DNA from: Parashewanella spongiae
Lineage (GTDB): Bacteria; Pseudomonadota; Gammaproteobacteria; Enterobacterales; Shewanellaceae
Length of the DNA stretch: 64,000 nucleotides
Reading direction: 5' to 3'
Assembly (NCBI RefSeq): GCF_004358345.1
Contig: NZ_CP037952.1
Span: forward strand, 620,001 to 684,000
A program made the position numbers and the translations under genes. A model generated the notes under the pieces. The model searched no databases and was not told the origin of the DNA. It worked only from the letters and a program-made list of their open reading frames with translations. This document shows, one piece after another, positions 5,256 to 61,508 of this stretch. Position 1 is the stretch's first letter. The number at the start of each line of letters is the position of its first letter.

Positions 5256-5615
5256 CACCATTTACAGTAATTAATCTCTCACTCAGCAAGAGCTAAAGGG
5301 TTTCAGTGCAAGGCACAAGCTCGAAGTACTATATTCCCTACGGCCGCCACACAAAGCTGGCGTACAACGCATTTAGTGCTTTTGTCGGGATAATTCAAGT
5401 GTTTGTAACGCAGTAATGGAACCCTTTAGCCTTGCCCTTCGGGAGCTTGTATGTACTCACTTTAGTTTATAAAGAGTACTTCTCAAAATTGTCTTGACGT
5501 AGCAATATAATAACGACAGTTTTGTATGTCGATAACAACTATGCCTTCATCAATTTCTATTGCACTTTGAGCACATACACAGCTCTGAGTTGAGCATTTA
5601 ATTACTGTAATTGGA
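5256..5615. repeat. Family A miniature element, copy 1
   Basis: About 360 bp, non-coding, with decayed ends resembling TACCAATTACAGTAATTA and its inverse. It carries the shared hairpin core at 5514-5531 (minus orientation). The target TTA is seen on the left; the right end has decayed. Its right end replaces the last codons of the PPR-Smr pseudogene, so it was inserted into the end of that gene. Confidence 0.8.
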
Positions 5616-6160
5616 AAATACTTCGATAAACTCAAGTCCAAATTCATCTTTGAGAAAACTGATCATTCGATTTTTTAAAGTATTATTGCCATGGTATCCA
5701 GTTATGATCGATGTTATGTTGGGTTCATTGTTTTTTTGTGGTAACAAAATAATAGTTTTGCGAAAGCTACTGGAGCAACTCGAATGTGTGTACCATTGCC
5801 TTAATGTCCTTCGAAAAATTTATCCATATGCAAATCGATACAATGGTTCACTAAGCCAACACTTTTTTTATATTCCTTGTGTTATCCCTTTATCAATCAA
5901 GCTTGCGAAATGATCTTTTTCAATTGGCGCAAGTTGAGCATGTATTTGTGAAAAAGTACACATGTTACATTTGTTCATTATTTTTTCTAAACACCATATT
6001 CCAGAGTCAAATCCCTTAGCCTTAATACATACTTTAATAAAGGCATTGTAAATGGCAACATCGGTCTTGATGCCCCATTGTTGCATTAAGCTGGTTGTAT
6101 TTGTATTTGTATCGCTATCGCCCAATACCAATCTTTTGCCGTCTGAAAAATTTAAATTTA

Positions 6161-6194
6161 ACTTAATTAATATCAGTACTTAATTAATATCAGT
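6161..6194. repeat. 17-bp tandem duplication inside the PPR pseudogene
   Basis: ACTTAATTAATATCAGT occurs twice head to tail (6161-6177 and 6178-6194). The intact homologue at 13118-13135 has a single, diverged copy. The extra 17 bp shifts the reading frame. Confidence 0.85.
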
Positions 6195-6206
6195 AATAGT
6201 ATGCAT

Positions 6207-6252
6207 GTTTTCGATTCATAGGACGATTTAAATCGTGTTATGAATCGAAAAC
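6207..6252. repeat. 46-bp near-perfect palindrome in the PPR pseudogene
   Basis: The arms GTTTTCGATTCATA and TATGAATCGAAAAC surround ACGATTTAAATCGT; only two positions per arm fail to pair. In the intact paralogue the right arm is a different sequence (TGTCACTAAAAATA). The right arm therefore appears to be a templated copy of the left one. On the coding strand it makes TTC GAT TCA TAA, a new stop. Confidence 0.85.
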
Positions 6253-6346
6253 GCCGTCGAAATTAGATGAGTGGCTGTCAGAAAACTCGGCTGCTTTGTA
6301 TAACAATTTATGGATTAAAGTTATGTCTCAATACCCTTCTATAATG

Positions 6347-7826
6347 CAATGGCACTAACTTAAGATTTAGCTGAAGGTTTACTAATTGAACAATAGAGAG
6401 TAAATCATACAGATTAAGGTTTTTCTAGTGTCACGCCATGAATACTACAACTCGCCAATTCTTCAATGATGCCCCAGAATTGTTACGTCGCTTTGCTCAA
6501 ACGGAAGAAGATGAACTTTCTTCAATTCTCACTCTGCAAGATTTAGAAGATTTTCAAAAAGATAATACTCAAAGAGTACGCAAGTATCCCGCCTGCCACA
6601 CACTTTCGCTTTTCATGAAGCAAGTTGCCAGTGAAAACAAATCTTGTCGTTGCACACTAATCAGTGACGCTAGAGATCAAATTGCTATAGGTCGAGAGAA
6701 AAACAGCACAATTACAGGTCCCTACTGCAAAGCAAGAAAACGGTTATCTCCAGAGTCAATTAAATCGCTATTGAAGAAATCAGGAAAAAACTTAGATGAA
6801 GCGATTCAAGGGAAATACTTATGGCATGGCCGTAGAGTGCTATTAACTGACGGCTCAACACTATCTATGCCTGATACGGACGAGAACCAAGCCCAATTCC
6901 CTCAACCTAAATCACAAAAAGAAGGGCTGGGCTTTCCTCAGCTGCGGATTTTAGTGTTAATTTCTTTGGGTAGCGGTGCAGTCATTGACTCGGCTGTTTC
7001 ACCTTGTAAAGGGAAAGGTACTGGCGAGCAGGCACTATTAAGAAGTATGCAGTCAGACTTGAAACAAGGTGACATTGTGCTGGGAGATGCTAATTTCGAA
7101 AACTACTTTGTTCTTGTAGGACTAATGGGGTTAGGCGTTGATGCTGTTTTCGAAAAAAACGGAGCCAGAAATGTCGATTTCAGAACCTGTGAAGAAAAGC
7201 TGGGTAAGCGAGATGGTTTATTTAAGCTAATTCGTCCATCCTGTCCAGAATGGATGACCCCAGAGGATTACGCTCAAGTGCCAGAAGAGCTTATCGTCAG
7301 AATGGTAGGAACAAAGAAACGTATCATTGTTACCACCCTCACGGTTAAAGAAGTCTATCCGAAGCAAGATATTATTGATTTATACGTTTCACGATGGCAT
7401 ATCGAGTTGGATTTTAGGTCAATCAAGACCATGATGAAAATGGATATTTTAAGGTGTGGTAGTCCAGATATGGTGCGTAAGGAAATTGATGTTCATTTGT
7501 TAGTTTACAACATGATAAGGGCACTTATGTGCCGAGCGGCAGAAAAAAAAAGGAATATCGCCTAGAGAGGCAAGTTTTAAAGCCGCACATGACGCATTAC
7601 AAGATTTTCAGATATTACTTTTGCAAGCCACCGAAGGGATCATTGACACTTTATTGGATGTGATAGCAGATATTATCGGAGAGCATATCGTTGGCAATCG
7701 CCCGGGGAGAAAAGAACCGAGAGCAAAGAAAAGGCGACCGAAACCGACACCAAGGTTACAACATTCAAGAAAACAAGCACGTAGGCTTAAGGTATATCAG
7801 AAGTAATTCTTAAGTTAGTGCCATTG
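6347..7826 (+). mobile_element. Complete IS4-family insertion sequence, 1480 bp
   Basis: Bounded by 19-bp inverted repeats CAATGGCACTAACTTAAGA. It is flanked by a 10-bp direct repeat TTCTATAATG (6337-6346 and 7827-7836), in the range reported for IS4-type elements. The ends, target duplication and transposase all agree, so the borders are known to the base. It lies within the PPR-Smr pseudogene, in the opposite orientation to that gene. Confidence 0.95.
6438..7806 (+). CDS. IS4-family DDE transposase, split by a frameshift at A9
   Basis: The first frame (6438-7565, 375 aa) holds the DDE catalytic parts: LLTDGSTLSMPDT with the first Asp, VLGDANFENYF with the second, and YVSRWHIELDFRSIK with the Glu and the Y-x2-R-x3-E-x6-K pattern of IS4. 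At 7551-7559 there is a run of nine A, after which the frame stops. Reading on in the +1 frame, starting GISPREASFKAAHDALQDFQ, restores the normal C-terminus through RPGRKEPRAKKRRPKP to a stop at 7804-7806. One A fewer would give a continuous protein of about 455 residues. This is either a recent inactivating slip or slippage-dependent expression. Confidence 0.9.
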
Positions 7827-8076
7827 TTCTATAATGAGCCTTTTGTGGGCTAGATTTAGAGCGAGTCCTCGATGATTCCTTGTTAAAAAAATCATGCAGC
7901 TTTTGTCTATCGGTTTTGCTTAATCTTTGATAACCCTGTTGTAAGTCTTCATCATAATCAAACATTGAAACCTCAAAGTTCAGATAGGATACGGCTTCGC
8001 TTGGGTATTTTTGAAGGCTTTTGAATACGGATTCATATATTGATTGTTGTTTAGCAGTAGTGTGCACTGTCGCCAT

Positions 8077-8581: not shown

Positions 8582-8611
8582 ATGCGCACAAGAAGGCGTT
8601 ATGGTAAATAG
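8582..8611 (+). repeat. Inverted repeat, left arm of a two-gene block
   Basis: ATGCGCACAA, a variable 6-bp spacer, then GTTATGGTAAATAG. The same two blocks occur in reverse at 9665-9693 with a 5-bp spacer, so 24 positions match. The pair encloses the two small envelope genes. Confidence 0.75.
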
Positions 8612-9637: not shown

Positions 9638-9664
9638 GCGCTTTAAGCGAGCGTAATTCCAAAC

Positions 9665-10039: not shown

Positions 10040-13000
10040 TTAATGGGCAGACTTGCTTAATACTATCATTCCTGAGTTTAATTCATCCTCGATAAACTCA
10101 AGTTCAAATTCATCTTTGAGAAAACTTATCATTCCATTTTTTAACATATTATTGCCATGGTATCCAGTTATGATCGATGTTATGTTGGGTTCATTGTTTT
10201 GTTTGTGGTAACAAAATAATAGTTTTGCGAAAGCTAATGGAACACCTCGAATATGTGTACCATCGCCTGAATGTTCTTCGAAGATTTTATCCATATGCAA
10301 ATCGATACAATGATTCATTAAGCCAACATTTTTTTTATATATTCCTTGTGTTATTCCTTTATCAATCATGCTTGCGAAATTATCTTTTTCAAGCGGCGCA
10401 AGTTGAGCATATATTTGTGAAGGAGTACTCATGTTACATTCGTTCATAATTTTTTCTAAATACCATATTCCAATATCAAATTCTTTTGCCTTAATACATA
10501 CTTTAATAAAGGCATTGTAAATGGCTATATCAGGTTTGATACCCCATTGCTGCATTAAGCTGGATGTAACTGTATCGCCATCGCCCAACACCAATGATTT
10601 GGCTTCGGCATAACGTCCCGCTTCAGCGCAGGCCGTCAGCAAATTCATGCAGGTGATTGAATCTGCCTTTAGTGGTAGATGAGGTGCCATCACGGGCTTG
10701 TCACCACACACCAGTTGCCAAGCACTATCAAACTGGCCAGTTTTAGCGCATACCGTAATAAAGGCGCTGTAAATGGCAACATTAGGTTTGATGCCCCATT
10801 GTTGTATTAAGCTGACTGTAGCTGTATTGCCCAACACCAATGATTTGGCTTCTGCATAACGCCCCGCTTCAGCGCAGGCCGTCAGCAAATTTATGCAGGT
10901 GATTGAATCAGCCTTTAGTGGTAGATGAGGTGCCATCATGGGCTTATCATCACACACCAGTTGCCAAGCACTATCAAACTGGCTAGTTTTAGCACATACC
11001 GTGATAAAGGCATTGTAAATGGCAACATCAGGCTTGATGCTCCATAGTTGCATTAAGCTGGTTGTAGCTGTATCGCCATCGCCCAACACCAATGATTTGG
11101 CTTCGGCATAACGTCCCGTTTCAGCGCAGGCAGCCAGCAAATTCATGCAGGTGATTTTATTGGCTTTTAATGACAAGTGAGGTGCCATAACAGGCTTACC
11201 GCCACACACCAGTCGCCAAGCACTATCAAACTGCCTCGTTTTAGCGCATACCGTGATAAAGGCGTTGTAAATGGCAATATCAGGTCCGATGCCCCATTGT
11301 TGCATTAAGCTGGCTGTAGCTGTATCGCCATCGCCCAACACCAATGATTTGGCTTCTGCATGACGGCTCGTTTCAGCGCAGGCCGTTAGCAAATTCATGC
11401 AGGTGATTGAATCTGCCTTTAGTGGTAGATGAGGTGCCATCACGAGCTTATCACCACACACCAGTTGCCAAGCACTATCAAACTGGCCAGTTTTAGCGCA
11501 TACCGTGATAAAGGCACTGTAAATGGCAACGTTAGGCTTGATGCCCCATTGCTGCATTAAGCTTGTTGTACCTTTATCGCCTAACACCAATGATTTGGCT
11601 TCTGCATAACGCTTCATTTCGGCGCAGGCAATCAGTAAATTCATGCAGGTGATTTGATTGGCCTTTAATGGTAAATGAGGTGCCATCACGGGTTTGTCAC
11701 CACACACCAGTCGCCAAGCACTATCAAACTGGCCCGTTTTAGCGCATACCGTGATAAAGGCACTGTAAATGGCAACATCAGGCTTGACGTCCCACTGCTG
11801 CATTAAACTGGCTGTAGCTGCATCGCCCAACACCAATGATTTGGCTTCTGCATAACGCTCCATTTCAGCGCAGGCCGTCAGCAAGTTCAGGCAGGTGATT
11901 TTATTGGCCTTTAATGACCAATGAGGGGCCATAACGGGCTTATCACCACACACCAGTTGCCAAGCACTATCAAACTGGCCCGTTTTAGCGCATACCGTGA
12001 TAAAGGCGCTGTAAATGGAAACATCAGCCTTGATGCACCATTGTTGCATTAAGCTGGCTGTATCTGTATCGCCATCGCCCAATACCAATGATTTTGCTTC
12101 TGCATAACGCTCCATTTCAGCGCAGGCAATCAGCAAATTCGTGCAGGTGATTGAATCTGCCTTTAGTGGTAGATGAGGTGACATTACGGGCTTGTCACCG
12201 CACACCAGTTGCCAAGCACTATCAAACTGGCCCGTTTTAGCGCATACCGTAATAAAGGTGCTGTAAATGGCAACATTAGGCTTGATTCCCCATTGTTGCA
12301 TTAAGCTGGCTGTAACTGTATCGCCCAACACCAATAATTTGGCTTCAGTAAAACGCTTCGTTTCAGCGCAGGCCGTCAGCAAATTCAGGCAAGTGATTTG
12401 ATTAGCTTTTAATGGCAAATGAGGTGACATCACGGGCTTATCAGCACACACCAGTTGCCAAGCACTATCAAACTGACCCGTTTTAGCGCATACCGTGATG
12501 AAGGCATTGTAAATGGCAACATCAGGCTTGATGCCCCACTGCTGCATTAAGCTGGCTGTAGCTGTATCGCCCAACACCAATAATTTGGCTTCAGTAAAAC
12601 GCTCCATTACAGCGCAGGCAGCCAGCAAATTCATGCAAGTGATTTGATTGGCCTTTAATGACAAATGAGGTGCCATTACAGGCTTGCTACCACACACCAG
12701 TCGCCAAGCACTATCAAACTGGCCCGTTTTAGCGCATACCGTGATAAAGGCGCTGTAAATGGCTACATTAGGCTTGATGTCCCACTGCTGCATTAAGCTG
12801 GCTGTGGCTGTATCGCCATCGTCATCGCCCAACACCAATGATTTGGCTTCGGCATAACGCCCAGCTTCAGCGCAAGCCGTTAGCAAATTCAGGCAGGTGA
12901 TTGAATCTGCATTTAGCGATAGGTGAGATGCCATAACGGGGTTATCACCACAAACCAGTTGCCAAGCACTATCAAACTGGGCAGTTTTAGCGCATACCGT

Positions 13001-13795
13001 GATAAAAGCATTGTAAATGGCAACATCAGGCTTAATGCACCACTGATGCATTAAGCTGGCTACTGCTGCATTGCCTAGCACCAATCTTTTGCCATCTGAA
13101 AAATTTAAATTTAACTTAATTAGTTTCAGTAATAGAGTGCATGTTTTCGCTTCATAGGACGATTTAAATCGTATTATGTCACTAAAAATACCGTCGAAAT
13201 CAGATGAATGGCTGTCAGAAAACGCGGCCGCTTTGTGTAACAGTTTATGGATTAACCTTATGTCCCATGATGTTTCCATGACCTGTTTGTCGCTTTTTAT
13301 GCTGTGAATGATTTCAATAAGCTGCGAAAGTTTAGTGCAACCACCAATTAATACATTTAACTCAATACCCAGTTGATTTTTGCTTTTCTTTTTAAGTTTC
13401 CATGAGTGAATAAGCTCACTGGTCTGAGTAAAAAAGGAATCAGAGGAGGGTGGTTGCTGTATTTGCTTGGTATATCGAGTGCTCGATTTTGGAGTGATGG
13501 AGCGGGGCTCAGTTGCAAAGCGTCGGTAAGCATTACTTGACTTCTTACAATAATGAGTCTCTCGTGTGCGAGAGTTAGAGCGAGTCGCCGATGATTTATT
13601 GTTGAAAAAATCATATAGCTTTTGTCTATCGGTTTTGCTTAATCTTTGATAACCCTGTTGTAAGTTTTCATCACCATCAAACCTTGAAACCTCAAAGTTT
13701 AGATAGGATACGGCTTCGCTTGGGTGTTCTTGAAGACTTTTGAGCATGAATCTATATATTGATTGTTGCTCAGCAGGAGTGCGCGCTGTCGCCAT
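10040..13795 (-). CDS. Large PPR-Smr repeat protein, 1251 aa
   Basis: No signal peptide. Residues 1 to about 230 form a family-specific region starting MATARTPAEQQSIY. Next come tandem ~82-residue double repeats built from a first helical pair (for example DVAIYNAFITVCAKTGQFDS) and a second (ADSITCMNLLTACAEAGRYA), both with the pentatricopeptide pattern. There are eleven first halves and ten full units, joined by variable acidic linkers such as GDGDTATA. The last ~150 residues resemble an Smr domain: CIDLHMDK, a GVPLAFAKLLFCYH helix, ITSIITGYHGNN, and NSGMIVLSKS. PPR arrays bind RNA and Smr domains are often nucleases, so an RNA-directed role is likely by inference. TTG 13807 is an alternative start; ATG 13795 is also present in the other family members. 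Confidence 0.85.
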   Translation of the reverse strand: MATARTPAEQQSIYRFMLKSLQEHPSEAVSYLNFEVSRFDGDENLQQGYQRLSKTDRQKLYDFFNNKSSATRSNSRTRETHYCKKSSNAYRRFATEPRSITPKSSTRYTKQIQQPPSSDSFFTQTSELIHSWKLKKKSKNQLGIELNVLIGGCTKLSQLIEIIHSIKSDKQVMETSWDIRLIHKLLHKAAAFSDSHSSDFDGIFSDIIRFKSSYEAKTCTLLLKLIKLNLNFSDGKRLVLGNAAVASLMHQWCIKPDVAIYNAFITVCAKTAQFDSAWQLVCGDNPVMASHLSLNADSITCLNLLTACAEAGRYAEAKSLVLGDDDGDTATASLMQQWDIKPNVAIYSAFITVCAKTGQFDSAWRLVCGSKPVMAPHLSLKANQITCMNLLAACAVMERFTEAKLLVLGDTATASLMQQWGIKPDVAIYNAFITVCAKTGQFDSAWQLVCADKPVMSPHLPLKANQITCLNLLTACAETKRFTEAKLLVLGDTVTASLMQQWGIKPNVAIYSTFITVCAKTGQFDSAWQLVCGDKPVMSPHLPLKADSITCTNLLIACAEMERYAEAKSLVLGDGDTDTASLMQQWCIKADVSIYSAFITVCAKTGQFDSAWQLVCGDKPVMAPHWSLKANKITCLNLLTACAEMERYAEAKSLVLGDAATASLMQQWDVKPDVAIYSAFITVCAKTGQFDSAWRLVCGDKPVMAPHLPLKANQITCMNLLIACAEMKRYAEAKSLVLGDKGTTSLMQQWGIKPNVAIYSAFITVCAKTGQFDSAWQLVCGDKLVMAPHLPLKADSITCMNLLTACAETSRHAEAKSLVLGDGDTATASLMQQWGIGPDIAIYNAFITVCAKTRQFDSAWRLVCGGKPVMAPHLSLKANKITCMNLLAACAETGRYAEAKSLVLGDGDTATTSLMQLWSIKPDVAIYNAFITVCAKTSQFDSAWQLVCDDKPMMAPHLPLKADSITCINLLTACAEAGRYAEAKSLVLGNTATVSLIQQWGIKPNVAIYSAFITVCAKTGQFDSAWQLVCGDKPVMAPHLPLKADSITCMNLLTACAEAGRYAEAKSLVLGDGDTVTSSLMQQWGIKPDIAIYNAFIKVCIKAKEFDIGIWYLEKIMNECNMSTPSQIYAQLAPLEKDNFASMIDKGITQGIYKKNVGLMNHCIDLHMDKIFEEHSGDGTHIRGVPLAFAKLLFCYHKQNNEPNITSIITGYHGNNMLKNGMISFLKDEFELEFIEDELNSGMIVLSKSAH

Positions 13796-13986
13796 CACAT
13801 TACTCAATAAGTGAGTGAATTAACAAGCTAAGAAATAACGCACTGAAAAGATAAATACAAAAATATTCAGCTTTAAGGCATTCTATAAATGTATAACAGA
13901 AAATTATCCACCGCACAGGGGAGCCGTTTCATAGCTCATAGCTGTATCTCAGACTCAAAAAAATAATGAAATTGTGAGTAAATTGG
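13796..13986 (-). promoter_or_regulatory. Conserved upstream module of the PPR-Smr family
   Basis: Near-identical over ~190 bp to the regions before the other two family members. It includes CCAATTTACTCACAATTT, a run of T, and GTTATACATTTATAGAAT, which could supply a -10 element. The neighbouring DNA beyond it is unrelated, so gene and control region have been copied together. Confidence 0.65.
13800..13916 (-). CDS. Possible 38-aa leader peptide upstream of the PPR-Smr gene
   Basis: A GTG-started frame reading MRWIIFCYTFIECLKAEYFC and ending in a hydrophobic SLLIHSLIE. Its TAA lies four bases before the PPR-Smr ATG. The same frame of the same length sits before the gene at 53467. It is hydrophobic enough to be a small membrane peptide or a coupling leader. 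The DNA here is so conserved that an open frame by itself is weak proof of translation. Confidence 0.35.
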   Translation of the reverse strand: MRWIIFCYTFIECLKAEYFCIYLFSALFLSLLIHSLIE

Positions 13987-14646: not shown

Positions 14647-14796
14647 GAAAGTATACCGATGAGTTCTCGTCACTCCAGCGCAGGCTGGAAACGAAGTAAC
14701 GACAGTTTTGTATATCGGTAGTCTAGTGCCTTTGCTTTTTCCTATAAAAGTCACTGGATACCAGCCTTCGCTGGTATGACAAAAATTGGTACTTTC
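14647..14796. repeat. Family E miniature element carrying the shared hairpin core
   Basis: About 150 bp between GAAAGTA ends. It holds two hairpins of the CCAGCGCAGGCTGG type (one reads ACCAGCGAAGGCTGGT in reverse). The shared core lies at 14700-14717 (minus orientation, one mismatch), next to one of these hairpins. It sits between ytfK and zapB, two convergent genes, and might also terminate their transcripts. Confidence 0.75.
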
Positions 14797-19624: not shown

Positions 19625-19858
19625 CCTAAAAACATCAGTTGAACGCAGAGTATATGAGTAACTGTTTGAGTCAATAAGATGACTTTATCATCATGGCTTT
19701 CACCTAATGAGTGAAATGCTCTACGCTCACAAGCTTGCTAAAATGGCTGCTATCTGCGTTGTAACTTTTGCAAGTAGAATAACTACTTGCTGCAAGCTAC
19801 GCCTTAATATCAGCCATTTTTTCTACGCTTGAGAACGTAGTCAACTGATGTTTCTAGG
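19625..19858. repeat. Family C miniature element, copy 1
   Basis: 234 bp bounded by CCTAAAAACATCAGTTGA and its inverse. A TTAAA target lies on the left; on the right the matching TTAAA is missing because the group II intron begins there. The second copy (31054-31286) is in the opposite orientation. Family C lacks the shared hairpin core: AAGTAGAATAACTACTT stands where the related family B carries it. Confidence 0.85.
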
Positions 19859-20467
19859 GAGCGCCACGAAGCGCTTTATTCTGTTGCGGGATTTGTCTCA
19901 ACGTATACGCAGCCAAGCGATTACATGGCCATAAACCAGAGACAGCAACGTTATTATTTATAATAAGTCCATCAGGTTGAAACGTACCTGACGGGATAAT
20001 TACCAGTTCATCCCGAAATCTGACGGGCATGCATAATGGGTAACCGCTATGACATGAAGCCCTGTGACAAAGGCCTTGAATAAAGGTTGAGATGCAATGT
20101 AGGCCGCAGCATCAAGCGAATTCAGTTAAGCGTCGTAAATCAAAAAATGAAGATGGGGAGTCTTTCCTAGTTGACGAACCCTGACACAAACAGAGAAGCA
20201 ACTGGTAAATGCATCTGTTTGATCTTCCGGCGTAATATGAAGTGGCATGTATTGAAGGAAATAAAGTGAACGTGGGAGAGCCTGAGTGTTGGAAGGTAGT
20301 GACTTCCACTATCCGAATATAAGGTAAACCGAAATTTCAGATAGGGCGCTCAGGCAGTCGGATGAGCCCATAGTACCGTTAACCGTGAAGACAACATAAC
20401 TTCACATCAGGGAAGGGACTCAGTGTTACACCCGTTTTTAACGTAACTTTTGAGGTGAAATTGCCAT

Positions 20468-21748
20468 ATGGCTAACACTCCAGTAAATATCAGAATATTA
20501 CAGCGAAAACTTTACTTACGCTCAAAGCTTAACTCGGAGCTACGATTTTACAGCTTGTACGATAAACTCAGTCGCCTAGATATACTCGAAGAAGCCTATC
20601 GACGATGCAAAGCCAATAAAGGCGGAGCAGGAATTGATGGCATCACATTCAGTTATCTAGAGCAGCAAAAGAAAGTCGTTGCGCTGTTAAAAGAAATTCA
20701 AACTCAATTACAACAGAAAAACTATCGACCTAGCCCAGTCAAACGAGTAGAAATACTCAAAGACAACGGCAAAACGCGGAAACTTGGGTTCCCGATAATC
20801 AGTGACAGAATTGTGCAAATGGCGATGACAATAGTGATGCAACCCGTCTACGAACCTCATTTACATGAACACAGTTATGGCTACCGTCCATGTCGAAGCG
20901 CCCAGCAAGCGGTAAAAGTCATTGAAATGAGCCTAAAACAAGGCTATCAGCACGTACTCGATGCTGACTTGAGCGCCTATTTCGATACCATCCCGCACGC
21001 TAAGTTGATGGCAAAAGTAGAAAGGCGAATAAGCGACAGCAGCTTTCTGAGTTTGCTGAAAAGCTTTATCAAAGCGCCCATCAGCATAGAGACGGTCAAC
21101 GGGAAATGGCGAATAGAAGCAAGCCGATGTGGCACTCCGCAAGGCGGAGTTATCTCTCCACTACTGGCTAACATCTATCTCAACGATTTCTGTTTGAAAA
21201 TACACGAAAAAACACCGTGTAAAATCGTTACCTATGCAGATGATTTTGTTGTACTTCATAAGCAAACCTACACACAAGAGCAACTGGACTGGATAGCACA
21301 GCAATTAAGTGATGAAGGTCTGAAGCTAAATCAAAGTAAAACCCACTGTGTGGATATGGGAAAGCTGATGAATGAGTTTGATTTCCTCGGTTTTAACTTT
21401 CAACGGATCACAGGCCTCATCAAAGGCACCAGTTACATTAAGATACAGGCGTCTAAGAAGAGCCAAACAAAGCTGAAAAATAAACTCAGAGACATAGTGA
21501 AGCATCGAACCTCAAATACACTTGGCGTACTGATAAATAAAGTTAATCAAGTTCTGAGTGGATGGAAACACTATTTTGCTGGGATAGGATATCCCAGAGG
21601 AGTATTTTTCAGAATAAATGGATTTGTAGTAAACCGATTCTATCGATGGCATCGTCGCTTAAGTCAACGTCGAAGCAAGTATCTATCACGAGGTGCTTAC
21701 GAAAAATTACGCCAAGCTGGTCTTGAGTATTTACCCACGACAAGATGA
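20468..21748 (+). CDS. ltrA: Group II intron reverse transcriptase/maturase
   Basis: 426 residues. The RT fingers and palm are seen in order: KANKGGAGIDGITF, GKTRKLGFPIISDRIVQMAM, HSYGYRPCRSAQQAV, DADLSAYFDTIPH, GTPQGGVISPLLANIYLND and the catalytic YADDFVVL. A maturase (X) domain follows, with INKVNQVLSGWKHYFAGIG. No HNH endonuclease is present. It reverse-transcribes the intron during retrohoming and helps it splice. ATG 20468 has GAGGTGA upstream. No frameshift or stop interrupts it, so it may be active. Confidence 0.93.
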   Translation: MANTPVNIRILQRKLYLRSKLNSELRFYSLYDKLSRLDILEEAYRRCKANKGGAGIDGITFSYLEQQKKVVALLKEIQTQLQQKNYRPSPVKRVEILKDNGKTRKLGFPIISDRIVQMAMTIVMQPVYEPHLHEHSYGYRPCRSAQQAVKVIEMSLKQGYQHVLDADLSAYFDTIPHAKLMAKVERRISDSSFLSLLKSFIKAPISIETVNGKWRIEASRCGTPQGGVISPLLANIYLNDFCLKIHEKTPCKIVTYADDFVVLHKQTYTQEQLDWIAQQLSDEGLKLNQSKTHCVDMGKLMNEFDFLGFNFQRITGLIKGTSYIKIQASKKSQTKLKNKLRDIVKHRTSNTLGVLINKVNQVLSGWKHYFAGIGYPRGVFFRINGFVVNRFYRWHRRLSQRRSKYLSRGAYEKLRQAGLEYLPTTR

Positions 21749-21785
21749 TAAGCAAAGTGAAGGAGCTGAGAGAAGTGTAACAACA

Positions 21786-21819
21786 GAGCCGTGTGAGGGA
21801 AAACCTCATGCACGGAATC
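21786..21819 (+). ncRNA. Group II intron domain V
   Basis: A 34-nt hairpin beginning GAGCCGTGTGAGG and closing with CCTCATGCACGG, with a GAAA loop. This is the length and pattern of domain V, the catalytic heart of group II introns. The AGC triad is AGC at 21787-21789. Confidence 0.85.
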
Positions 21820-21868
21820 GAAGAGGGGCTGCTGGATAAGCGATAGCGAAGCCAGTAGCCTACTCTAC

Positions 21869-26418: not shown

Positions 26419-26681
26419 CCTAAATAAATCGGTTGAATGCACAATTTAACTTTAATATATTGAAATTAAGTACAAAATTAAATAACCCGAATTCACCCAT
26501 CAGGTGAGTGCTGAACATTCATATACTTGACAAAATCACCGCTAGCTGCGTGATAAATTTTGCAAGTAAAAACGAAGTAACGACAGTTTTGTTTGTCGGT
26601 AACCACTACTTGCTGCTATTCATGCCTTGCTATCAGAAATTTTTTCTGCGTATATGAACGCTCCCAACCGATTTATTTAGG
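26419..26681. repeat. Family B miniature element, copy 1
   Basis: 263 bp bounded by CCTAAATAAATCGGTTG and its inverse, with a TTGAA target duplication on both sides (26414-26418 and 26682-26686). Core at 26581-26598 (minus orientation, one mismatch). It lies in the 500-bp gap between the small His-rich gene and czcB. Confidence 0.92.
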
Positions 26682-31053: not shown

Positions 31054-31286
31054 CCTAGAAACATCAGTTGACTGCGTTCTCAAGCGTAGAGAAAATGGCT
31101 GATATTAAGGCGTAGCTTGCAGCAAGCAGTTATTCTACTTGCAAAAGTTACAACGCAGATAGCAGTCATTTTAGCAAGCTTGCGAGCGTAGAGCGCTTCA
31201 CTCATTGGGTGAAAGCCATGATGATAAAATCATCGTATTGCTCAAACAGTTACTCGTATACTCAGCGTTCAACTGATGTTTTTAGG
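31054..31286. repeat. Family C miniature element, copy 2
   Basis: 233 bp between CCTAGAAACATCAGTTGA and its inverse, with a TTAAA target duplication on both sides. It lies between the PAP2 and glycosyltransferase genes, directly after the PAP2 stop, and is inverted relative to copy 1 at 19625-19858. Confidence 0.92.
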
Positions 31287-40659: not shown

Positions 40660-41023
40660 GATCAGCGTCAAGCTATGCCTGTACTATCTGCCCATATTAA
40701 GACTTTTTTCGTTGTCTCCACAACAGATCAAAGTTCTATAACATGATAAATTTGAAAAATTATCGCACGTTTTATGGTATTGCCAATACCATATTGTTTG
40801 GGTTCAGAAATATCGTTTTAGGATACTTAAGGGACAAGTTGCGAATGAAGCGTTCAATTGTATTCAGATACACTGTGGTAGGTTATCAACAAGTAGCAGA
40901 GCTAAATGCACAAAAAACTAATGTTCACCTTTTTGGTAAAGTGCCGCCCAAATGCTAAATATCAAATTCACTAGAAACCGCAAAAGATAGAGAACAATAA
41001 TATTAAGAAAGTTCAACCACTTA
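40660..41023. other. Intergenic stretch, no clear gene
   Basis: A 71-codon frame at 40743-40958 has no ribosome site and no recognisable family; I do not annotate it. The rest is AT-rich. Confidence 0.45.
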
Positions 41024-41391
41024 CACCAATTACAGTAATTATTCTCTCACTCAGCAAGAGTTAAAGGGTTTCAGTGCAAGGCACAAGCTCGAAGTACTAT
41101 ATTCCCTACGGCCGCCATACAAAACTGGCCTTCAACGCATTTAGTGCTTTTGTCAGGATAATTTAAGTGCTTGTAACGCGGTAATGGAACCCTTTAGCCT
41201 TGCCCTTTGGGAGCTTGTATGTGCTCACTTTGGTTTATAAAGAATACTTCTCAAAATTGTCTTGACGTAGCAATGTAATAACGACAGTTTTGTATGTAGG
41301 AAACAATCGGCAACTATGTCTTCATCAATCTCGATTGCACCTTGAGCACATACATAGCTATGAGTTGAGCATTTAATTACTGTAATTGGTA
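41024..41391. repeat. Family A miniature element, copy 2
   Basis: 368 bp between CACCAATTACAGTAATTA and TAATTACTGTAATTGGTA, with a TTA target repeat on each side (41021-41023 and 41392-41394). Core at 41282-41299 (minus orientation, its far end altered to TGTAG). Confidence 0.9.
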
Positions 41392-41569: not shown

Positions 41570-41832
41570 CCTAAATAAATCGATTGAGAGCGTTCATATA
41601 CGCAGAAAAAATTACTGATAGCAAGGCATGAATAGCAGCAAGTAGTGGTTACCGACAAACAAAACTGTCGTTACTTCGTTTCTACTTGCAAAATTTATAT
41701 CGCAGCTAGCGGTGATTTTGGCAAGTATATGAATGTTCAGCACTCACCTGATGGGCGTATCCGGGTTATTTAACTTTGTATTTAATTTCAATATATTAAA
41801 GGTAAATTGTGCGTTCAACCAATTTATTTAGG
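41570..41832. repeat. Family B miniature element, copy 2
   Basis: 263 bp, the same length as copy 1 and inverted relative to it. Ends CCTAAATAAATCGATTG and CAACCAATTTATTTAGG. Core at 41654-41671. No target repeat is visible. The outer flank on the left is CTTCGTGGCGCTC, the reverse complement of the sequence beside element C and the intron at 19859. Confidence 0.9.
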
Positions 41833-43341: not shown

Positions 43342-43606
43342 AGGGGCTGTTTATCTTTCGTGATTATTTTTGCAGCGATAAATTGGTCGTTTTATGCAAG
43401 ACAGAGCTTGTGCGGTTTGGTATTCCAAATAAGCAAGCGATAACGCAGTAGAAATGACCAGTTTACGCTGTCTTAGATGATTTTTAGCGTTCACTATTCT
43501 GTGTTGTAACCCGTTTACTTAGATGACTAAGCTTCACGGCTTACGCCTTGAACAGATAAACGCTCAAATAGCACAAAATTTAATCCTGAAAGATAAACAG
43601 CCCCTA
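43342..43606. repeat. Family D miniature element, copy 1 (without core)
   Basis: 265 bp from TAGGGGCTGTTTATCTTTC to GAAAGATAAACAGCCCCTA. The site where copy 2 carries the core reads TTTGGTATTCCAAA here. A further TTAGGGGCTGT at 43625 can pair with the right end and form a hairpin. Confidence 0.88.
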
Positions 43607-49735: not shown

Positions 49736-50059
49736 CTAAAGCAGAAAAAAATACTGATAGCAAGGCATGAATAGCAGCAAGTAGTGGTTACCGACATACA
49801 AAACTGTCGTTACTTCGTTTCTACTTGCAAAATTTATAATGCAGTTAGCGGTGATTTTGGCAAGTATATGAATGCTCAGCACCCATCTGAAGAGTGAATT
49901 CGGGTTGTTTAATCTCAGTAGGGTAAATTCCTCGCCGCTTGCGGCGGACTAACGTCTTTATCTAACTAATTGATACCTCGCCCCTTGGGGCGGGGTGATT
50001 CATTCTTGTATTTAACTTCAATAGATTAAAGTTAAATTGTGCGTTCAACCGATTTATTA
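49736..50059. repeat. Family B miniature element, copy 3, with a 90-bp insert
   Basis: The left end is shortened to CCTAA-GCAGAAAA and the right end stops within CCGATTTATT. Core at 49792-49809. Between about 49915 and 50006 it holds an insert absent from the other copies, with two small hairpins (CGCCGCTTGCGGCG and CGCCCCTTGGGGCG). Confidence 0.85.
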
Positions 50060-52303: not shown

Positions 52304-52650
52304 TACCAATTACAGTAATTAAATTCCCAGCTCAGAGCTATGTATGTGTTCAAAGTACAAGTGAAATTGATGAAGACATAGTTATTACCGACATACAAAA
52401 CTGTCGTTATTACATTGCTACGTTGAGACAGTTTTGCGTAGTAATTTGGACACATACAAGCTCCCGAAGGGCGAGGCTAAAGGATTCCATTACTACGTTA
52501 CAAGTTTTTGAATTATCCCGACAAAAGCACTAAGTGCGTTGAACGCCAGTTTTGTATGGCGGCCGTAGGGAATATAGTACTTCAAACTTGCGCCTTGTAC
52601 TGAAATCCTTTAGCTCTTACTGAGTGGGAAGTTAATTACTGTAATTGGTA
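52304..52650. repeat. Family A miniature element, copy 3
   Basis: 347 bp between TACCAATTACAGTAATTAA and TTAATTACTGTAATTGGTA, with TTA on each side (52301-52303 and 52651-52653). Core at 52389-52406. Inserted in a decayed IS630 transposase gene. Confidence 0.93.
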
Positions 52651-53272: not shown

Positions 53273-53466
53273 CCAATTTACGCTCAATTTCATTATTTTT
53301 TGTTTGAGTTTGAGGCACAACGATGAGCTACGAAACGGCTTCTCTATGCGGTGGGTAATCTTCTGTTATACATTTATAGAATACCTTAAAGCTGAATATT
53401 TTTGTATTTATCTTTTCAGTGCGTTATATCTTAGCTTATTAATTCACTCACTTATTGAGTAATGCG
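53273..53466 (+). promoter_or_regulatory. Conserved upstream module of the PPR-Smr family
   Basis: The third copy of the ~190-bp region before each PPR-Smr gene. It contains CCAATTTACGCTCAATTTC, a T-rich tract, and a GTTATACATTTATAGAAT promoter-like stretch. Homology to the other copies stops abruptly at about 53273. Confidence 0.65.
53346..53462 (+). CDS. Possible 38-aa leader peptide before the PPR-Smr gene
   Basis: An ATG-started frame reading MRWVIFCYTFIEYLKAEYFC to a hydrophobic end (SLLIHSLIE), stopping four bases before the PPR-Smr ATG. It matches the frame at 13800-13916 in length. It may couple translation to the main gene. No clear ribosome site is seen. Confidence 0.35.
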   Translation: MRWVIFCYTFIEYLKAEYFCIYLFSALYLSLLIHSLIE

Positions 53467-55737
53467 ATGGCGACAGTGCGCACTCCTGCTGAACAACAAT
53501 CAATATATGAATCCGTACTCAAAAGCCTCCAAGAATACCCAAGCGAAGCCGTATCCTATCTAAACTTTAAGGTTTCAAAATTTGATGATAATGAAGACTT
53601 ACAACAGAGTTATCAAGTATTAAGCGAAACCAATAAACAAAAGCTGTATGATTTTTTCAACACTGAATCATCGCCGACTCACTCCAACTCTCACAAACGA
53701 GAAGTTCATAATTGTGAGAAGCCAAGTAATGTTTGCCCATATTTTGCAACTGAGCCCTTCTCCAATGCTCCACAATCAAGCACTCAATATGCTAAGCAAA
53801 TACACCAACCATCTTCCTCCCCTAATTCCTTTGATACTCAGACCCGTGCGCTCATTCACTCTTGGAAACTTGAACAGAAAAGCAAAAATCAACTGGGTAT
53901 TGAGTTAAATGCATTAATTGGTGGTTGCACTAAACTTTCGAAGCTTATTGAAATCATTCACACCCTAAAAAACGACAAACGGGTCATGGAAACATCATGG
54001 AACATAAGGTTAGTCCATGAATTGTTGCACAAAGCGGCCGAGTTTTCTGACAGCCATTCATCTGATTTCGACGGCGTTTTTAGTGACATAGTACTATTTA
54101 AATCTGCCTATGAAGCGAAAACATGCATCCTATTACTGAAATTAATTAAGTTAAATTTAAATTTTTCAGATGCCAAAAGGTTGGTACTAGGCAATGCAGC
54201 TGAAGCCAGCTTAATGCAACAATGGGGCATCAAGCCTGATGTTGCCATTTACAATGCCTTTATCACGGCATGCGTTAGAACTGACCACTTTAATAGTGCT
54301 TGGCAACTGGTGTGTGGTGACGAGCCTGTGATGGCACCTCATTTGCCACTAAAGGCAAATTCAATCATCTGCTTGAATTTGCTGACGGCCTGCGCTGAAG
54401 CGGGGCGTTATGCAGAAGCCAAATCATTGGCGTTGGGCGATGGCGATACAGCTACAGCCAGCTTAATGCAACAATGGGACATCAAGCCTAATATTGTCAT
54501 TTACAATTCCTTTATCATGGTATGCGCTAAAACGGGCCAATTTGATAGTGCTTGGCAACTGGTGTGTGGTGATAAGCCCGTGATGGCACCTCATTTGTCA
54601 CTAAAAGCAGATTCAATTACCTGCATAAATTTGCTGACGGCCTGCGCTGAAGCAGGGCGTTATGTAGAAGCCAGATCGTTGGTGTTGGGCGATGGCAATG
54701 CAGCTACAGCCAGCTTAATGCAACAATGGGACATCAAGCCTAATGTTGCCATTTACAGCGCCTTTATCACGGTATGCGCTAAAACGAGCCAGTTTGATAG
54801 TGCTTGGCAACTGGTGTGTGGTGATAAGCCCGTGATGGCACCTCATTTGTCATTAAAAGCCAATCAAATCACCTGCATGAATTTGCTGGCTGCCTGCGCT
54901 GAAGCGGGGCGTTTTGCAGAAGCCAAATCATTGGTGTTGGGCGATGGCGATACAGCCAGCTTAATGCAACAGTGGGGCATCAAGCCTAACGTTGCCATTT
55001 ACAATGCTTTTATCACGGTATGCGCTAAAACGGGCCAATTTGATAGTGCTTGGCAACTGGTGCGTGGTGATAACCCCTTGATGGCACCTCAACTACCACT
55101 AAAGGCAGATTCAATCACCTGCCTGAATTTATTGACTGCCTGCGCCGAAATGGAGCGTTTTACAGAAGCCAAATCATTGGTGTTGGGCGATGACGATACA
55201 AACACAGCTACAGACAGTTTAATGCAACAATGGGGCATCAAGCCTGATGTTGCCATTTACAATGCCTTTATTAAAGTATGTATTAAGGCTAAGGAATTTG
55301 ACGCTGAAATATGGTATTTAGAAAAAATTATGAACGAATGTAACATGAGTACTCCTTCACAAATACATGCTCAACTTGCGCCGCTTGACAAAGATAATTT
55401 CGCAAGCATGATTGATAAAGGGATAACACAAGGAATATATAAAAAAAGTCTTGGCTTAATGAATCATTGTTTAGATTTACATATAGATAAAATCTTCGAA
55501 GGACAATCAAGCAATGGTACACATATTCGAGGTGTTCCATTAGCTTTCGCAAAACTATTATTTTGTTATCACAAAAAAAATAATGAACCCAACATAGTGT
55601 CGATCATAACTGGATACCATGGCAATAATACGGTAAAAAATGGAATGATAAGTTTTCTCAATGATGTATTTGGACTTGAGTTTATCGAGGATAAATTCAA
55701 CTTAGGAAAGATAGTATTGAGCGAGTCTACCCATTAA
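53467..55737 (+). CDS. PPR-Smr repeat protein, 756 aa
   Basis: A shorter sister of the 1251-residue protein at 10040-13795 with the same order: an N-terminal region (~230 residues, starting MATVRTPAEQQSIYESVLKS), PPR-like double repeats, and an Smr-like C-terminal domain (CLDLHIDK, GVPLAFAKLLFCYH, IITGYHGNN). It has five first halves and four full ~82-residue units against eleven and ten in the sister. Individual units are near-identical in DNA as well as protein, so unit number has changed recently. A TTG at 53455 could also start it. Its stop TAA is the target of element A copy 4. Confidence 0.85.
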   Translation: MATVRTPAEQQSIYESVLKSLQEYPSEAVSYLNFKVSKFDDNEDLQQSYQVLSETNKQKLYDFFNTESSPTHSNSHKREVHNCEKPSNVCPYFATEPFSNAPQSSTQYAKQIHQPSSSPNSFDTQTRALIHSWKLEQKSKNQLGIELNALIGGCTKLSKLIEIIHTLKNDKRVMETSWNIRLVHELLHKAAEFSDSHSSDFDGVFSDIVLFKSAYEAKTCILLLKLIKLNLNFSDAKRLVLGNAAEASLMQQWGIKPDVAIYNAFITACVRTDHFNSAWQLVCGDEPVMAPHLPLKANSIICLNLLTACAEAGRYAEAKSLALGDGDTATASLMQQWDIKPNIVIYNSFIMVCAKTGQFDSAWQLVCGDKPVMAPHLSLKADSITCINLLTACAEAGRYVEARSLVLGDGNAATASLMQQWDIKPNVAIYSAFITVCAKTSQFDSAWQLVCGDKPVMAPHLSLKANQITCMNLLAACAEAGRFAEAKSLVLGDGDTASLMQQWGIKPNVAIYNAFITVCAKTGQFDSAWQLVRGDNPLMAPQLPLKADSITCLNLLTACAEMERFTEAKSLVLGDDDTNTATDSLMQQWGIKPDVAIYNAFIKVCIKAKEFDAEIWYLEKIMNECNMSTPSQIHAQLAPLDKDNFASMIDKGITQGIYKKSLGLMNHCLDLHIDKIFEGQSSNGTHIRGVPLAFAKLLFCYHKKNNEPNIVSIITGYHGNNTVKNGMISFLNDVFGLEFIEDKFNLGKIVLSESTH

Positions 55738-56052
55738 TACCAATTACAGTAATTAAATGCTCAACTCAGAGCTATGTATGCGCACAAAGTACAAACGAAA
55801 TTGATGAAAACATAGTTATCTACGTTGAGATAATTTTGTGAAGTAATTTTTGCGCATACAAGCTCCCGAAGGGCAAGTCTAAAGGTTTCCATTACTGCGT
55901 TGCACGTTCTTGAATTATCCCGACAAAAGCACTAAGTGCGTTGAACGCCAGTTTTGTATGGCGGCCGTAGGGAATATAGTACTTCGAACATGCGCCTTGT
56001 ACTGAAAACCTTTATCTCTTGCTGAGTGAGAGATTAATTACTGTAATTGGTA
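55738..56052. repeat. Family A miniature element, copy 4 (without core)
   Basis: 315 bp, bounded by TACCAATTACAGTAATTAA and its inverse, with TAA on each side (55735-55737 and 56053-56055). The left TAA is the stop codon of the PPR-Smr gene. It lacks the ~32-bp block with the hairpin core found in copies 1-3: the sequence reads AGTTATCTACGTTGAG. Confidence 0.95.
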
Positions 56053-59016: not shown

Positions 59017-59082
59017 AGGTCTGAAAATTCAATAGTGCAAAAATTCTACATGTATTGAAAAGAGGGGAAGTTGGGGTATTGA

Positions 59083-60711
59083 TTAAAATTTAAGTTTTGG
59101 CTCAATAATAAATCCAATATATTGCTTCCACCCAGAACGAGACTTTTCTAGGCACAAATCAATATCTTTTTCATCCTTAATGACCCTTTTTAAGATTAGA
59201 TCTTCACGCCTCCATAAGTATTGTGTGACAACAACTTTCACAATGTGCCCTTTCTGTAAATATTGTTTTGCTCGTGCGCACACCGCGGCATCCATTCCTT
59301 TTGTTCCAAGATTAAAATTCGTTAAACTTATTTTTTCAAGCGGTAAGTGCTGGTGGCCAGCTTTATGTCGCCCTTTATAAGCAGAATTAATCATGCAGGC
59401 TTCCATGACGGTTGCATAGACACACATGTCTTTGAGGAAAACATCAAGCTGTTCGGTAGAGTTTGAAGCAATACCACAAATACTTAAAAATTCAGTTTTT
59501 CTTTTTGGGTCATTTGAACATAGAATGTTATAGGCCGCCCGAGAAAAGTCTTTTTCTAGAATCATACGCTGAATGGTATCTGGACACAGGCCAGTTAGAC
59601 AGTCAGCAACACCATGAAAAATAGTTATGCTTTTTTGTCCATTCACTGATGAATTAATTTCAACTTGCGAGGTGTCATCTGATGCTACCTCGTTGTCAAA
59701 TAAGTGATTCCATAAGTCATTTGTAACAATTTGCTCTAATTTTAATTTATCCAGCTTATCGGATAAACTTAACCCTAATACTTGGATAAGATGGCTAAAT
59801 TTTCCATGTAAAAATGGAGACGTTTGCGGGTCTTCAATGAACAGCCAAGTTTTTGCGATTTCGTTCGCTACAATAGATGGAAGTCCATTTAGAAAAACCC
59901 TGGGGTTTGCATCTTTTATTCCAGACTCTCTGAGCAAGATAGTTAGTGTTTTCAATATGGAGTGATGACATTTTATAGTGTCTCCTTTCATCCATTCTTC
60001 CAAAGATGGCATTACAAAGCTCTGTTGCTCCAGTATATAGGCATTGATCAACTTTGATTTATTATTAAGCAGTTGTTCCTCAGGATGTTCACAATAACGA
60101 TGATCATGAAATCGCACCAACTCACAAGTTTGATGCTTGTTTATCAGAGTTTTTAGAATGTTAGGCTCAAGAGTCAAGCAAAGTTGTTGCCCTAATAGCA
60201 TAATGGCTGGAAAATATGTGCGAATGTCTGTTGCGCGACAGGTCAATTTTTGAAGTTCATCACTCAGTTGTGGAAATCTTAACTTCATCGATGCATTTGT
60301 TGCATCACATATAGATTGGCGTACTTGAGGTAATAAGCTCGTACAATACAAGTGTGCTTTTTCTCTTGAAGGGACAATAATTTCATCAAATGGAACTTTC
60401 GTAAGGTCGACAACATAATATGTATTATCATCCGAATAATCACTTTCATTTTTAAAGTGAGGAAACAATGTGCTAAATGTTGCTTCTGATCCTCTATATG
60501 GAAAGCGTCGGTCTCCTTTAAAACAAGTTTGATGAAATTGACTGACAATACCAAGTTTGTTTTCGAAACCAGCGTTCTTATCCTGAACGGTATATTCATG
60601 ATCTGCACGTTTTATCGTTGAAGAAAAAAATTCAAGTCTTAGCTCGTTTACAACCGGTGATTCTGTCGTTAGCTTTGTGCTTGAAAAGTCAATATTTGCC
60701 AGAAAGCTCAT
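59083..60711 (-). CDS. Orphan protein, 542 aa, unknown function
   Basis: A cytoplasmic-looking protein with no signal peptide, membrane helix or repeat that I recognise. It begins MSFLANIDFSSTKLTTESPV and ends KQYIGFIIEPKLKF. It has scattered Cys and His (FHDHRYCEHPEE, HKAGHQHLPLEK) and is AT-rich. It stands alone between the two-component system and miniature elements. Its size, composition and isolation recall the ankyrin protein at 901-3174, which raises the idea of an effector-like gene, but no domain supports that. A ribosome-like AGGAA lies 7-11 bases before the ATG. Confidence 0.7.
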   Translation of the reverse strand: MSFLANIDFSSTKLTTESPVVNELRLEFFSSTIKRADHEYTVQDKNAGFENKLGIVSQFHQTCFKGDRRFPYRGSEATFSTLFPHFKNESDYSDDNTYYVVDLTKVPFDEIIVPSREKAHLYCTSLLPQVRQSICDATNASMKLRFPQLSDELQKLTCRATDIRTYFPAIMLLGQQLCLTLEPNILKTLINKHQTCELVRFHDHRYCEHPEEQLLNNKSKLINAYILEQQSFVMPSLEEWMKGDTIKCHHSILKTLTILLRESGIKDANPRVFLNGLPSIVANEIAKTWLFIEDPQTSPFLHGKFSHLIQVLGLSLSDKLDKLKLEQIVTNDLWNHLFDNEVASDDTSQVEINSSVNGQKSITIFHGVADCLTGLCPDTIQRMILEKDFSRAAYNILCSNDPKRKTEFLSICGIASNSTEQLDVFLKDMCVYATVMEACMINSAYKGRHKAGHQHLPLEKISLTNFNLGTKGMDAAVCARAKQYLQKGHIVKVVVTQYLWRREDLILKRVIKDEKDIDLCLEKSRSGWKQYIGFIIEPKLKF

Positions 60712-60839
60712 TGAAATTCCTAAAAAAAGAACGAAAACAAATGTTAAAGCTTGATTAACTATTTCCCCAATGAATAATAGTTAATTTTTAGTGCGAGTTT
60801 AATCACTCTGGGTTTAATTCCTCGTCCCTTGGGGCGAAC

Positions 60840-61157
60840 TAGGGTCTGTTGATCTTTCGTGATTGTTTTTGCAGCGATAAATTGGTTATTTTATGCAAGG
60901 CAGAGTTTGTGAGGTTTGGTTATTATCGACATACAAAACTGTCGTTACTTCGTTTCCAAATAAGAAAACGGTAACGCAGCACCTTTTATTTAGAAAGAGC
61001 GACCAATTTACGCTCTCTCTTTTTTCGATGCTTTTGAGCATTCACTGTTCTGTGTTGTGACCAGCTCACTTAGATGGCTAAGCATCACTGCTCACGCCTT
61101 GAACAGATAAATACTCAAATAGCACAAAATTTAATCCTGAAAGATCAACAGACCCTA
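60840..61157. repeat. Family D miniature element, copy 2 (with core)
   Basis: 318 bp between TAGGGTCTGTTGATCTTTC and GAAAGATCAACAGACCCTA. Core at 60927-60944, set between TTTGGTTAT and TTCCAAATAAG, where copy 1 has only TTTGGTATTCCAAATAAG. Just before it lies a small hairpin (CGTCCCTTGGGGCG) like those inserted in family B copy 3. Confidence 0.88.
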
Positions 61158-61165
61158 ACATAAAA

Positions 61166-61508
61166 GGTTTGTGTCTTGTCATACCTGCGTAGGCTGGTAT
61201 CCAGCGACTTTCACTAAACAAGAACGAACGTTAGACTACCGACATACAAAACTGTCGTTATTACATTGCTACGTCAAGACAATTTTGAGAAGTATTCTTT
61301 ATAAACCAAAGTGAGCACATACAAGCTCCCAAAGGGCAAGGCTAAAGGGTTCCATTACTGCGTTACAAGCACTTAAATTACCCCGACAAAAGCACAAAGT
61401 GCGTTGAGCGCCAGCGTTGTATGGCGGCCGTAGGGAATATAGTACTTCGAGCTTGCACTGTAACCCTTTAGCTCTTGTTAAGTGAGAGATTAATTACTGT
61501 AATTGGTA
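61166..61508. repeat. Chimeric element: left arm of E, right arm of A
   Basis: From 61166 to about 61235 it follows family E (TTGTCATACC, GGCTGGTATCCAG, then TTAGACTACC). The shared core lies at 61240-61257. From there to 61508 it follows family A, ending TTAATTACTGTAATTGGTA. The change of family falls within the core. Confidence 0.82.

What the first reader, a model, noticed from the sequence alone, without database searches (positions are those of the whole stretch)
5514..61257. One 18-bp hairpin core occurs in five unrelated miniature-element families
CGACATACAAAACTGTCG (a 5-bp stem, CGACA/TGTCG, with an 8-base loop), or a form with at most two changes, is found nine times: 5514, 14700, 26581, 41282, 41654, 49792, 52389, 60927 and 61240. 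It sits inside families A, B, D, E and a chimera, and nowhere in the genes. Outside the core the sequence falls into two types: TTATTACATTGCTACG in A-type copies and TTACTTCGTTT in B, D and E. The families have different ends and different target sizes, so common descent does not explain the shared block. It may be a tiny insertion that uses other elements as carriers, a recombination site, or a protein-binding site gained by each family. I know of no description of such a shared module.
Basis: seen in the sequence. Interest (0 to 1): 0.85.

Follow-up and report, generated by a model that had tools for sequence, protein, structure and literature searches.

The report
Tiny DNA insert in hairpin tips
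A 31-letter DNA piece that can itself fold into a small hairpin has been inserted, with the same ends each time, into several kinds of short repeated elements of Parashewanella bacteria, often at the tip of a hairpin, so it behaves like an extremely small mobile element riding on larger ones.

Summary
The 18-bp core is real (12 window hits at <=3 mismatches, 0.03 expected; 711 in the genome, 1 in the control). It is the centre of a discrete insert X: ACCGACATACAAAACTGTCGTTAYTNCRTTK, 31 bp. Carriers without X give matched empty sites: net 31 bp in B, B'', E, D, F, G1, G2 and H, 31-32 in A. Of 117 X in a 1.264-Mb sample 108 have T before and C after; several sites are the 3' end of a hairpin loop. 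X was found only in Parashewanella. Carriers B, E, F and G are partly related: they share a covarying 52-nt hairpin, Y, found in 69 of 274 class genomes, so the carrier hairpin is older than X. One ancestral element already holding the core is thus contradicted. A 53-bp variant (X3) sits in family A. Chimeras swap arms at the core (6 of 98). X lacks REP tags, terminal inverted repeats and target duplications; no REP transposase passes its cut-off in five genomes. Best reading: a minimal non-autonomous mobile hairpin moved in trans; enzyme and single-strand route are inferred.

The parts
5503..5533 (-). X (tail TTATTATATTG) in family A, core 1
14689..14719 (-). X (tail TTACTTCGTTT) in family D (palindromic pair resembling CGTC-type REPs)
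26570..26600 (-). X in the apex of the Y hairpin of family B
26546..26628 (-). Y hairpin with X (83 nt instead of about 52)
41271..41301 (-). X (decayed, TCCTACATAC..) in family A, core 1
41651..41681 (+). X in the apex of the Y hairpin of family B
41623..41705 (+). Y hairpin with X
49790..49820 (+). X in the apex of the Y hairpin of family B
49762..49844 (+). Y hairpin with X
52387..52417 (+). X in family A, core 1
60925..60955 (+). X in the apex of the Y hairpin of family E
60897..60979 (+). Y hairpin with X (left half of family E)
61238..61268 (+). X at the junction of a chimera: D-type left arm, A-type right arm
5333..5385 (+). X3, 53-bp variant (core CGCCACACAAAGCTGGCG) in the Y hairpin of family A (Y 5310-5413)
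41101..41153 (+). X3 variant in family A, core 2 (CGCCATACAAAACTGGCC)
52521..52573 (-). X3 variant in family A, core 2 (Y 52493-52596)
55923..55975 (-). X3 variant in family A, core 2 (Y 55895-55998)
61386..61438 (-). X3 variant in family A, core 2 (core CGCCATACAACGCTGGCG at 61409)
55819..55820 (+). empty site of X (family A, core 1): ...CATAGTTAT^CTACGTTGAG...
19754..19805 (-). Y hairpin without X (family B')
31107..31158 (+). Y hairpin without X (family B')
43398..43448 (+). Y hairpin without X (left half of an E-type copy, GGTTTGGTATT^CCAAATAAG)
43499..43549 (-). Y hairpin without X, right half of the same E-type copy
61050..61100 (-). Y hairpin without X, right half of the E copy that carries X in its left half

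Best explanation
The core is the middle of a discrete, non-autonomous insertion module X of 31 bp (ACCGACATACAAAACTGTCGTTAYTNCRTTK; a 5-bp stem with an 8-nt loop, 2 nt on one side and 11 on the other), with a 53-bp relative X3. SHOWN: X is present or absent at single points of several carrier types, adding 31 bp (31-32 in A), with no duplication of target bases beyond the one or two Ts that leave the ends ambiguous; the point is mostly T^C; in B, E, F, G1 and H it is the junction between the 3' end of a hairpin loop and the 3' arm, and in each of these the ..TTT end of X abuts the 3' arm; in the collections searched X occurs only in Parashewanella, while the carrier hairpin Y is class-wide. 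INFERRED: X entered the carrier types by separate events and was then multiplied as a passenger of the carriers. It was probably inserted as single-stranded DNA into hairpins exposed in single-stranded DNA, by a nuclease/strand-transferase supplied in trans (an HUH-type enzyme such as a resident IS200/IS605 TnpA is the leading guess, not demonstrated). My odds: discrete mobile insert 0.9; single-strand hairpin-tip insertion 0.45; HUH enzyme 0.3.
For: Net lengths taken straight from the loci: 31 bp in B, B'', E, D, F (two loop alleles), G1, G2, H; 31 and 32 in two A comparisons (contexts). Of 117 X found in the 1.264-Mb sample, 108 have T before and C after, 39 lie in the Y skeleton. F copies with X carry different loop alleles that match different X-less copies (CTGGT: L054 vs L187, L196, L207; CCAGT: L074, L160 vs L192, L193), which suggests more than one insertion at the same point. 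5 of 8 empty sites have a perfect >=4-bp stem whose 3' arm starts at the insertion point, against 3.3% of 6,799 T^C sites in the window. Carrier hairpin Y: 87.9% of cells paired vs 55.1% shuffled, covariation 0.850 vs 0.233; in 69 of 274 class genomes, the own one included; an example with E-like ends and no X lies in another family (L213). X itself: 421 exact cores in the genome, 9, 12, 5 and 19 in four congeners, 0 in the 55 other genomes; all 19 stretches of the scan of 84,980 species genomes are in records of this genus.
Against: The hairpin rule is not universal: D and G2 have no perfect stem at the point and A only 3 bp, 7 bp with one mismatch; among 32 distinct 3' arms in relatives only 7 have a >=4-bp stem (one of them an X3 copy to which a 31-bp cut does not apply) and 17 are T^C; these arms are not independent. 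H rests on short homology between L059 and L068. No autonomous version and no transposase beside X as a flanking pair, no REP transposase over cut-off. Few X clearly stand in unique DNA; for the one tested (L162) no orthologous site at all was matched in the four other genomes. One empty E copy lies among filled ones on a weakly resolved tree, so some absences may be losses or conversions. X3 has two empty copies in the sample.
Confidence: 0.6

Rival explanations
1. Template switching or recombination at hairpins, not an enzyme of its own: replication stalls at palindromes and copies the 31-bp block from another copy, joining by 1-3 bases of T/TTC microhomology.
For: Junctions have T or TT microhomology; chimeras that swap arms at X exist (6 of 98); X is itself a small palindrome; damaged copies exist (L078, L085, L124, L133).
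Against: The same two ends recur in unlike carriers and in five species. The few damaged copies look like later decay of full insertions, since in L078, L085 and L133 the D arms and one end of X are in place; a copying accident would be expected to leave more variable lengths.
Confidence: 0.2
2. X was an ancestral tip of the carrier hairpin and has been lost repeatedly by precise deletion.
For: B, E, F and G share the Y skeleton and X sits at the same point in it, 17 nt before AACRCAG; one empty E copy lies among filled ones.
Against: Y is spread over the class while X was found in one genus only; X also sits in carriers without Y (D, A core 1, H, G2); I see no flanking repeats that would give exact 31-bp deletion.
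Confidence: 0.07
3. X is a binding site or RNA hairpin gained and kept by selection because it helps the carrier spread or protects transcripts.
For: Stem kept through an A:T/C:G double change in different backgrounds; loop TACAAAAC nearly constant; copies with X outnumber X-less ones in E (22 to 15) and A (24 to 5).
Against: Explains persistence, not arrival with the same ends; X-less copies outnumber X copies in B-like elements (34 to 13) and in F of G003 and G004.
Confidence: 0.15

Closest known systems
REP elements (GTAG- and CGTC-tagged; PMC3733652: abstract, passages, sections 7 and 16 read)
   Same: 20-40 bp palindromic, high copy, extragenic; that paper reports some REPs lying inside palindromes (A. 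variabilis GTAG-15, T. roseum GTAG-23, H. neapolitanus CGTC-1).
   Different: X has neither tag, there is no RAYT over cut-off in five genomes, it sits as a monomer inside other mobile elements, and it has matched empty sites in several carriers.
MITEs (the carriers A, B, E look like such; review PMC10969869, passages read)
   Same: Non-autonomous, small, mostly intergenic, spread with the carriers.
   Different: X has no terminal inverted repeats and no target duplication, and is far smaller.
IS200/IS605 single-strand transposition and TnpA-REP (PMC8266576, passages read)
   Same: Hairpin-borne element, one-strand polarity, no target duplication (these family features are recalled).
   Different: X has one hairpin, no paired left and right ends, no fixed 5' target tetranucleotide; no resident IS200 gene seen is flanked by an X pair.
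Insertion sequences that target REPs (PMC1525189, abstract read) and the 50-bp internal block of Correia elements (PMC2229807, passages read)
   Same: Insertion into palindromic repeats; small elements that exist with and without an internal block.
   Different: Those are IS elements, or one block in one family; here one block occurs in several families.

Membership tests
REP (GTAG/CGTC) | unpaired GTAG or CGTC tag beside the stem | tested here: not met
   bases beside the stem on the complementary strand are mostly GTAA, ATAA or TGAA, rarely others such as GCAA
REP (GTAG/CGTC) | dedicated RAYT transposase in the genome | tested here: not met
   NF047646 over cut-off in 0 of 5 genus genomes (weak matches in all 5), over it in 1 of 14 control genomes; the 4 TnpA tested are IS200 type
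REP (GTAG/CGTC) | 20-40 bp palindrome in high copy, extragenic | tested here: met
   31 bp; 421 exact cores with free stem pair; 1 of 161 in a long ORF
MITE | terminal inverted repeats | tested here: not met
   ends ACC.. and ..TTT/TTG are not inverted repeats
MITE | target-site duplication | tested here: not met
   filled minus empty is 31 bp with at most T/TT ambiguity
IS200/IS605-derived element | distinct left-end and right-end hairpins | tested here: not met
   one hairpin per X; no X halves standing apart as element ends: the one separated pair (L100) is a B copy split by another element inside X
IS200/IS605-derived element | X beside a TnpA gene | tested here: not met
   in 18 loci with Y1 matches, cores only in L035, L036, L041, L045, L046, L047, not as a flanking pair
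IS200/IS605-derived element | cleavage by TnpA on single-stranded DNA | not testable with these tools
   needs protein
known RNA family | match in Rfam 15 | tested here: not met
   only group II intron parts in the window; one match at E 3.8 over 60800-61700, taken as chance

The most novel reading that the evidence does not exclude
X is a new class of minimal mobile DNA: a single 31-nt hairpin that is inserted as one strand at the tips of hairpins, directly before the 3' arm, and so parasitises the palindromes of other mobile elements; X3 shows that the class holds more than one size.
Probability: 0.35. Interest if true: 0.85.

Novelty: new variant of a known kind. Interest (0 to 1): 0.68.

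Why it matters
If X moves on its own it would be among the smallest mobile DNA units known (from memory), and its empty sites would give a clean natural assay for an activity that joins DNA at hairpin tips. It would also show how unlike MITE families can come to share a block without common descent, and give chimeras a preferred crossover point. The carrier hairpin Y, class-wide, strongly covarying and without an Rfam match in the window, is a finding of its own.

Tried and rejected
REP/RAYT reading: no tag, no RAYT over cut-off. X as two fused transposon ends: X halves standing apart were sought; the true ones are L100 2100943, the right half of a B copy whose left half is at 2103705, split inside X by an element with inverted ends TAGGGCAAACGGGTC, transposase-like ORFs and a 10-bp direct repeat GTCGTTACTT, and L124 4289209, a truncated X before a D-type arm; neither is an X-ended autonomous element. 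Phage or plasmid source: no exact match in IMG/VR, matches only at E about 4 in phages and plasmids. X as ancestral tip of Y: contradicted. Other modules in Y tips of other genera: the pattern with a 55-85 nt gap was too noisy (no clear case seen in the capped listing, inconclusive). Autonomous parent of the carriers: pairs of ends 1-4 kb apart in the sample were not followed up, L100 excepted. A first tree script returned nothing, apparently because of a BLAST setting, and was repeated. The L138 core in another genus has no X flanks and is taken as chance. Of 10 D copies counted without X (L078, L085, L133) hold a damaged X.
Full report
Observation. The core occurs 12 times in the window at <=3 mismatches (0.03 expected). 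The genome (5,468,749 bp, window at 620001-684000) has 711 hits at <=3 mismatches (control 1) and 421 exact CGNCATACAAAACTGNCG (control 0).

Sample. I took 60 stretches of 20 kb spaced over the genome plus the window (1.264 Mb): 183 cores at <=4 mismatches, most of them in family A (two cores), E, D, B, some in rarer contexts, and a few that are chance matches in coding DNA. Of 161 cores at <=2 mismatches, 1 is in an ORF >=150 aa; such ORFs cover 72% of the sample.

Empty sites. Family B reads GCAAGTAGTGGTT^CTACTTGC without the module and GCAAGTAGTGGTT-ACCGACATACAAAACTGTCGTTACTTCGTTT-CTACTTGC with it; the sister family B'' shows the same. E: TTTGGTTATT^CCAAA; D: CTAGACT^CCAG. A core 1: CATAGTTAT^CTACG, with the tail TTATTACATTG. 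In congeners: G1, G2 and H by comparing copies, and F, where the X-less query gave 13 match rows in G003 and 41 in G004, mostly unbroken, i.e. without X; the filled copies I had (L054, L070, L073, L074, L160) carry loop alleles found among X-less copies, except CCGTT of L070 and L073, which I did not see without X. Read straight from the loci, the net difference is 31 bp in B, B'', E, D, F, G1, G2 and H, and 31 or 32 in A. Across the sample the gap between the arms was 31 in 21 of 22 E, 12 of 13 B and 12 of 14 D copies with X, 32 or 34 in A; without X it was 0-5, except three D copies at 7, 19 and 32, the last two with a damaged X. Of 117 X in the sample 108 have T before and C after and 39 lie in the Y skeleton.

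Where it goes. In 5 of 8 empty sites (B, E, F, G1, H) a perfect stem of 4 bp or more has its 3' arm starting at the insertion point; 3.3% of 6,799 T^C sites in the window do. A core 1 has the stem with one mismatch; D and G2 have none. Among 32 distinct 3' arms in congeners (not independent) 17 are T^C and 7 have such a stem. So the rule is a strong tendency, not a law.

The carriers are partly related. B, B', B'', E, F and G share AAGGC-N39/40-AACRCAG; in the sample matches peak at gaps 39 and 40 (38 each) and 71 (29, i.e. with X), 155 in all for gaps 10-110 against 21 in one shuffle. An alignment of 27 such hairpins from 12 genomes gives 13 pairs, 87.9% of cells paired against 55.1% shuffled, 120 double changes against 39.9, covariation 0.850 against 0.233 and 0.09-0.17 for slid versions; two measures that count pairs or types are not beyond the shuffles (44 and 194 of 500 reach them). 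The first version with 29 rows gave the same. The model built from it finds 176 matches in the sample at E<=0.01: by my count of the listing 37 are 82-83 nt (X inside), 11 are 103-106 nt (X3 inside), the other 128 are 45-56 nt. It matches 69 of 274 class genomes at E<=1e-4, the own one included (at most 21 candidates scored per genome); some sequences that built it are among the matches. L213, from another family, has E-like ends (CTAGGGCCTGTTGA..) and no X.

Distribution of X. Congeners have 9, 12, 5 and 19 exact cores; the other 55 genomes have none. Of 369 class genomes only the own one and one with a lone core without X flanks match. The genus is Gammaproteobacteria, Shewanellaceae; the window's species was not identified. 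No exact match in IMG/VR; matches only at E about 4 in phages and plasmids.

X3. Core 2 of family A is a 53-bp relative (ATTCCCTACGGC-core-TTCAACGCACTTAGTGCTTTTGT) in the tip of a Y hairpin; two A copies lack it, at T^C (gaps 39 and 41). Similar forms in congeners: L071, L171, L166, L076, L172.

Chimeras. Among copies with both arms in the four main arm classes, 6 of 98 combine arms of two families at the core; contexts. Homology of 31 bp may suffice.

Mechanism. No RAYT passes its cut-off in five genomes; the 4 resident Y1 proteins tested are IS200 type and Y1 genes are not flanked by X pairs. A strand-specific, duplication-free insert at hairpin tips would fit single-strand chemistry, but nothing here shows it.

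Literature. The rows listed by the searches show no paper on a shared module of this sort; most subscription papers are not held. PMC3733652 section 7 is the nearest precedent I read: REPs lying inside palindromes.

Noticed in passing
window 19754-19805, 31107-31158, 43398-43549, 61050-61100; L209-L230, L249-L274: Y hairpin: a roughly 52-nt, strongly covarying structure AAGGC-stem-inner stem-loop-AACRCAG, in many loci in inverted pairs inside MITE-like elements whose ends begin CTAG.., matched in 69 of 274 class genomes searched; no Rfam match in the window.
   Followed up: partly
window 10040-13807 and 53455-55737: Two long ORFs, in opposite orientation, with similar internal repeats of 246-258 bp (10 and about 5 units, roughly 65-92% identical).
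   Followed up: no
window 19970-21868: Group II intron parts (Rfam RF02003 and RF00029) on either side of an ORF at 20468-21748.
   Followed up: no
window 40775-40879 (L047): Fragment of a Y1 (IS200-like) transposase gene near an A and a B element.
   Followed up: no
L241, L244, L245, L247, L248: Y1-like proteins with open frames of 332-359 aa in the four congeners but not among the matches of the window's genome, below the RAYT cut-off and without X in the fetched loci.
   Followed up: no
L100 (genome 2100791-2103789): A family B copy whose X is split by an element of about 2.7 kb with transposase-like ORFs and a 10-bp direct repeat, an insertion into X.
   Followed up: partly
L071, L166, L171: X3 forms carry a second hairpin followed by a T-rich stretch, resembling an intrinsic terminator.
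   Followed up: no
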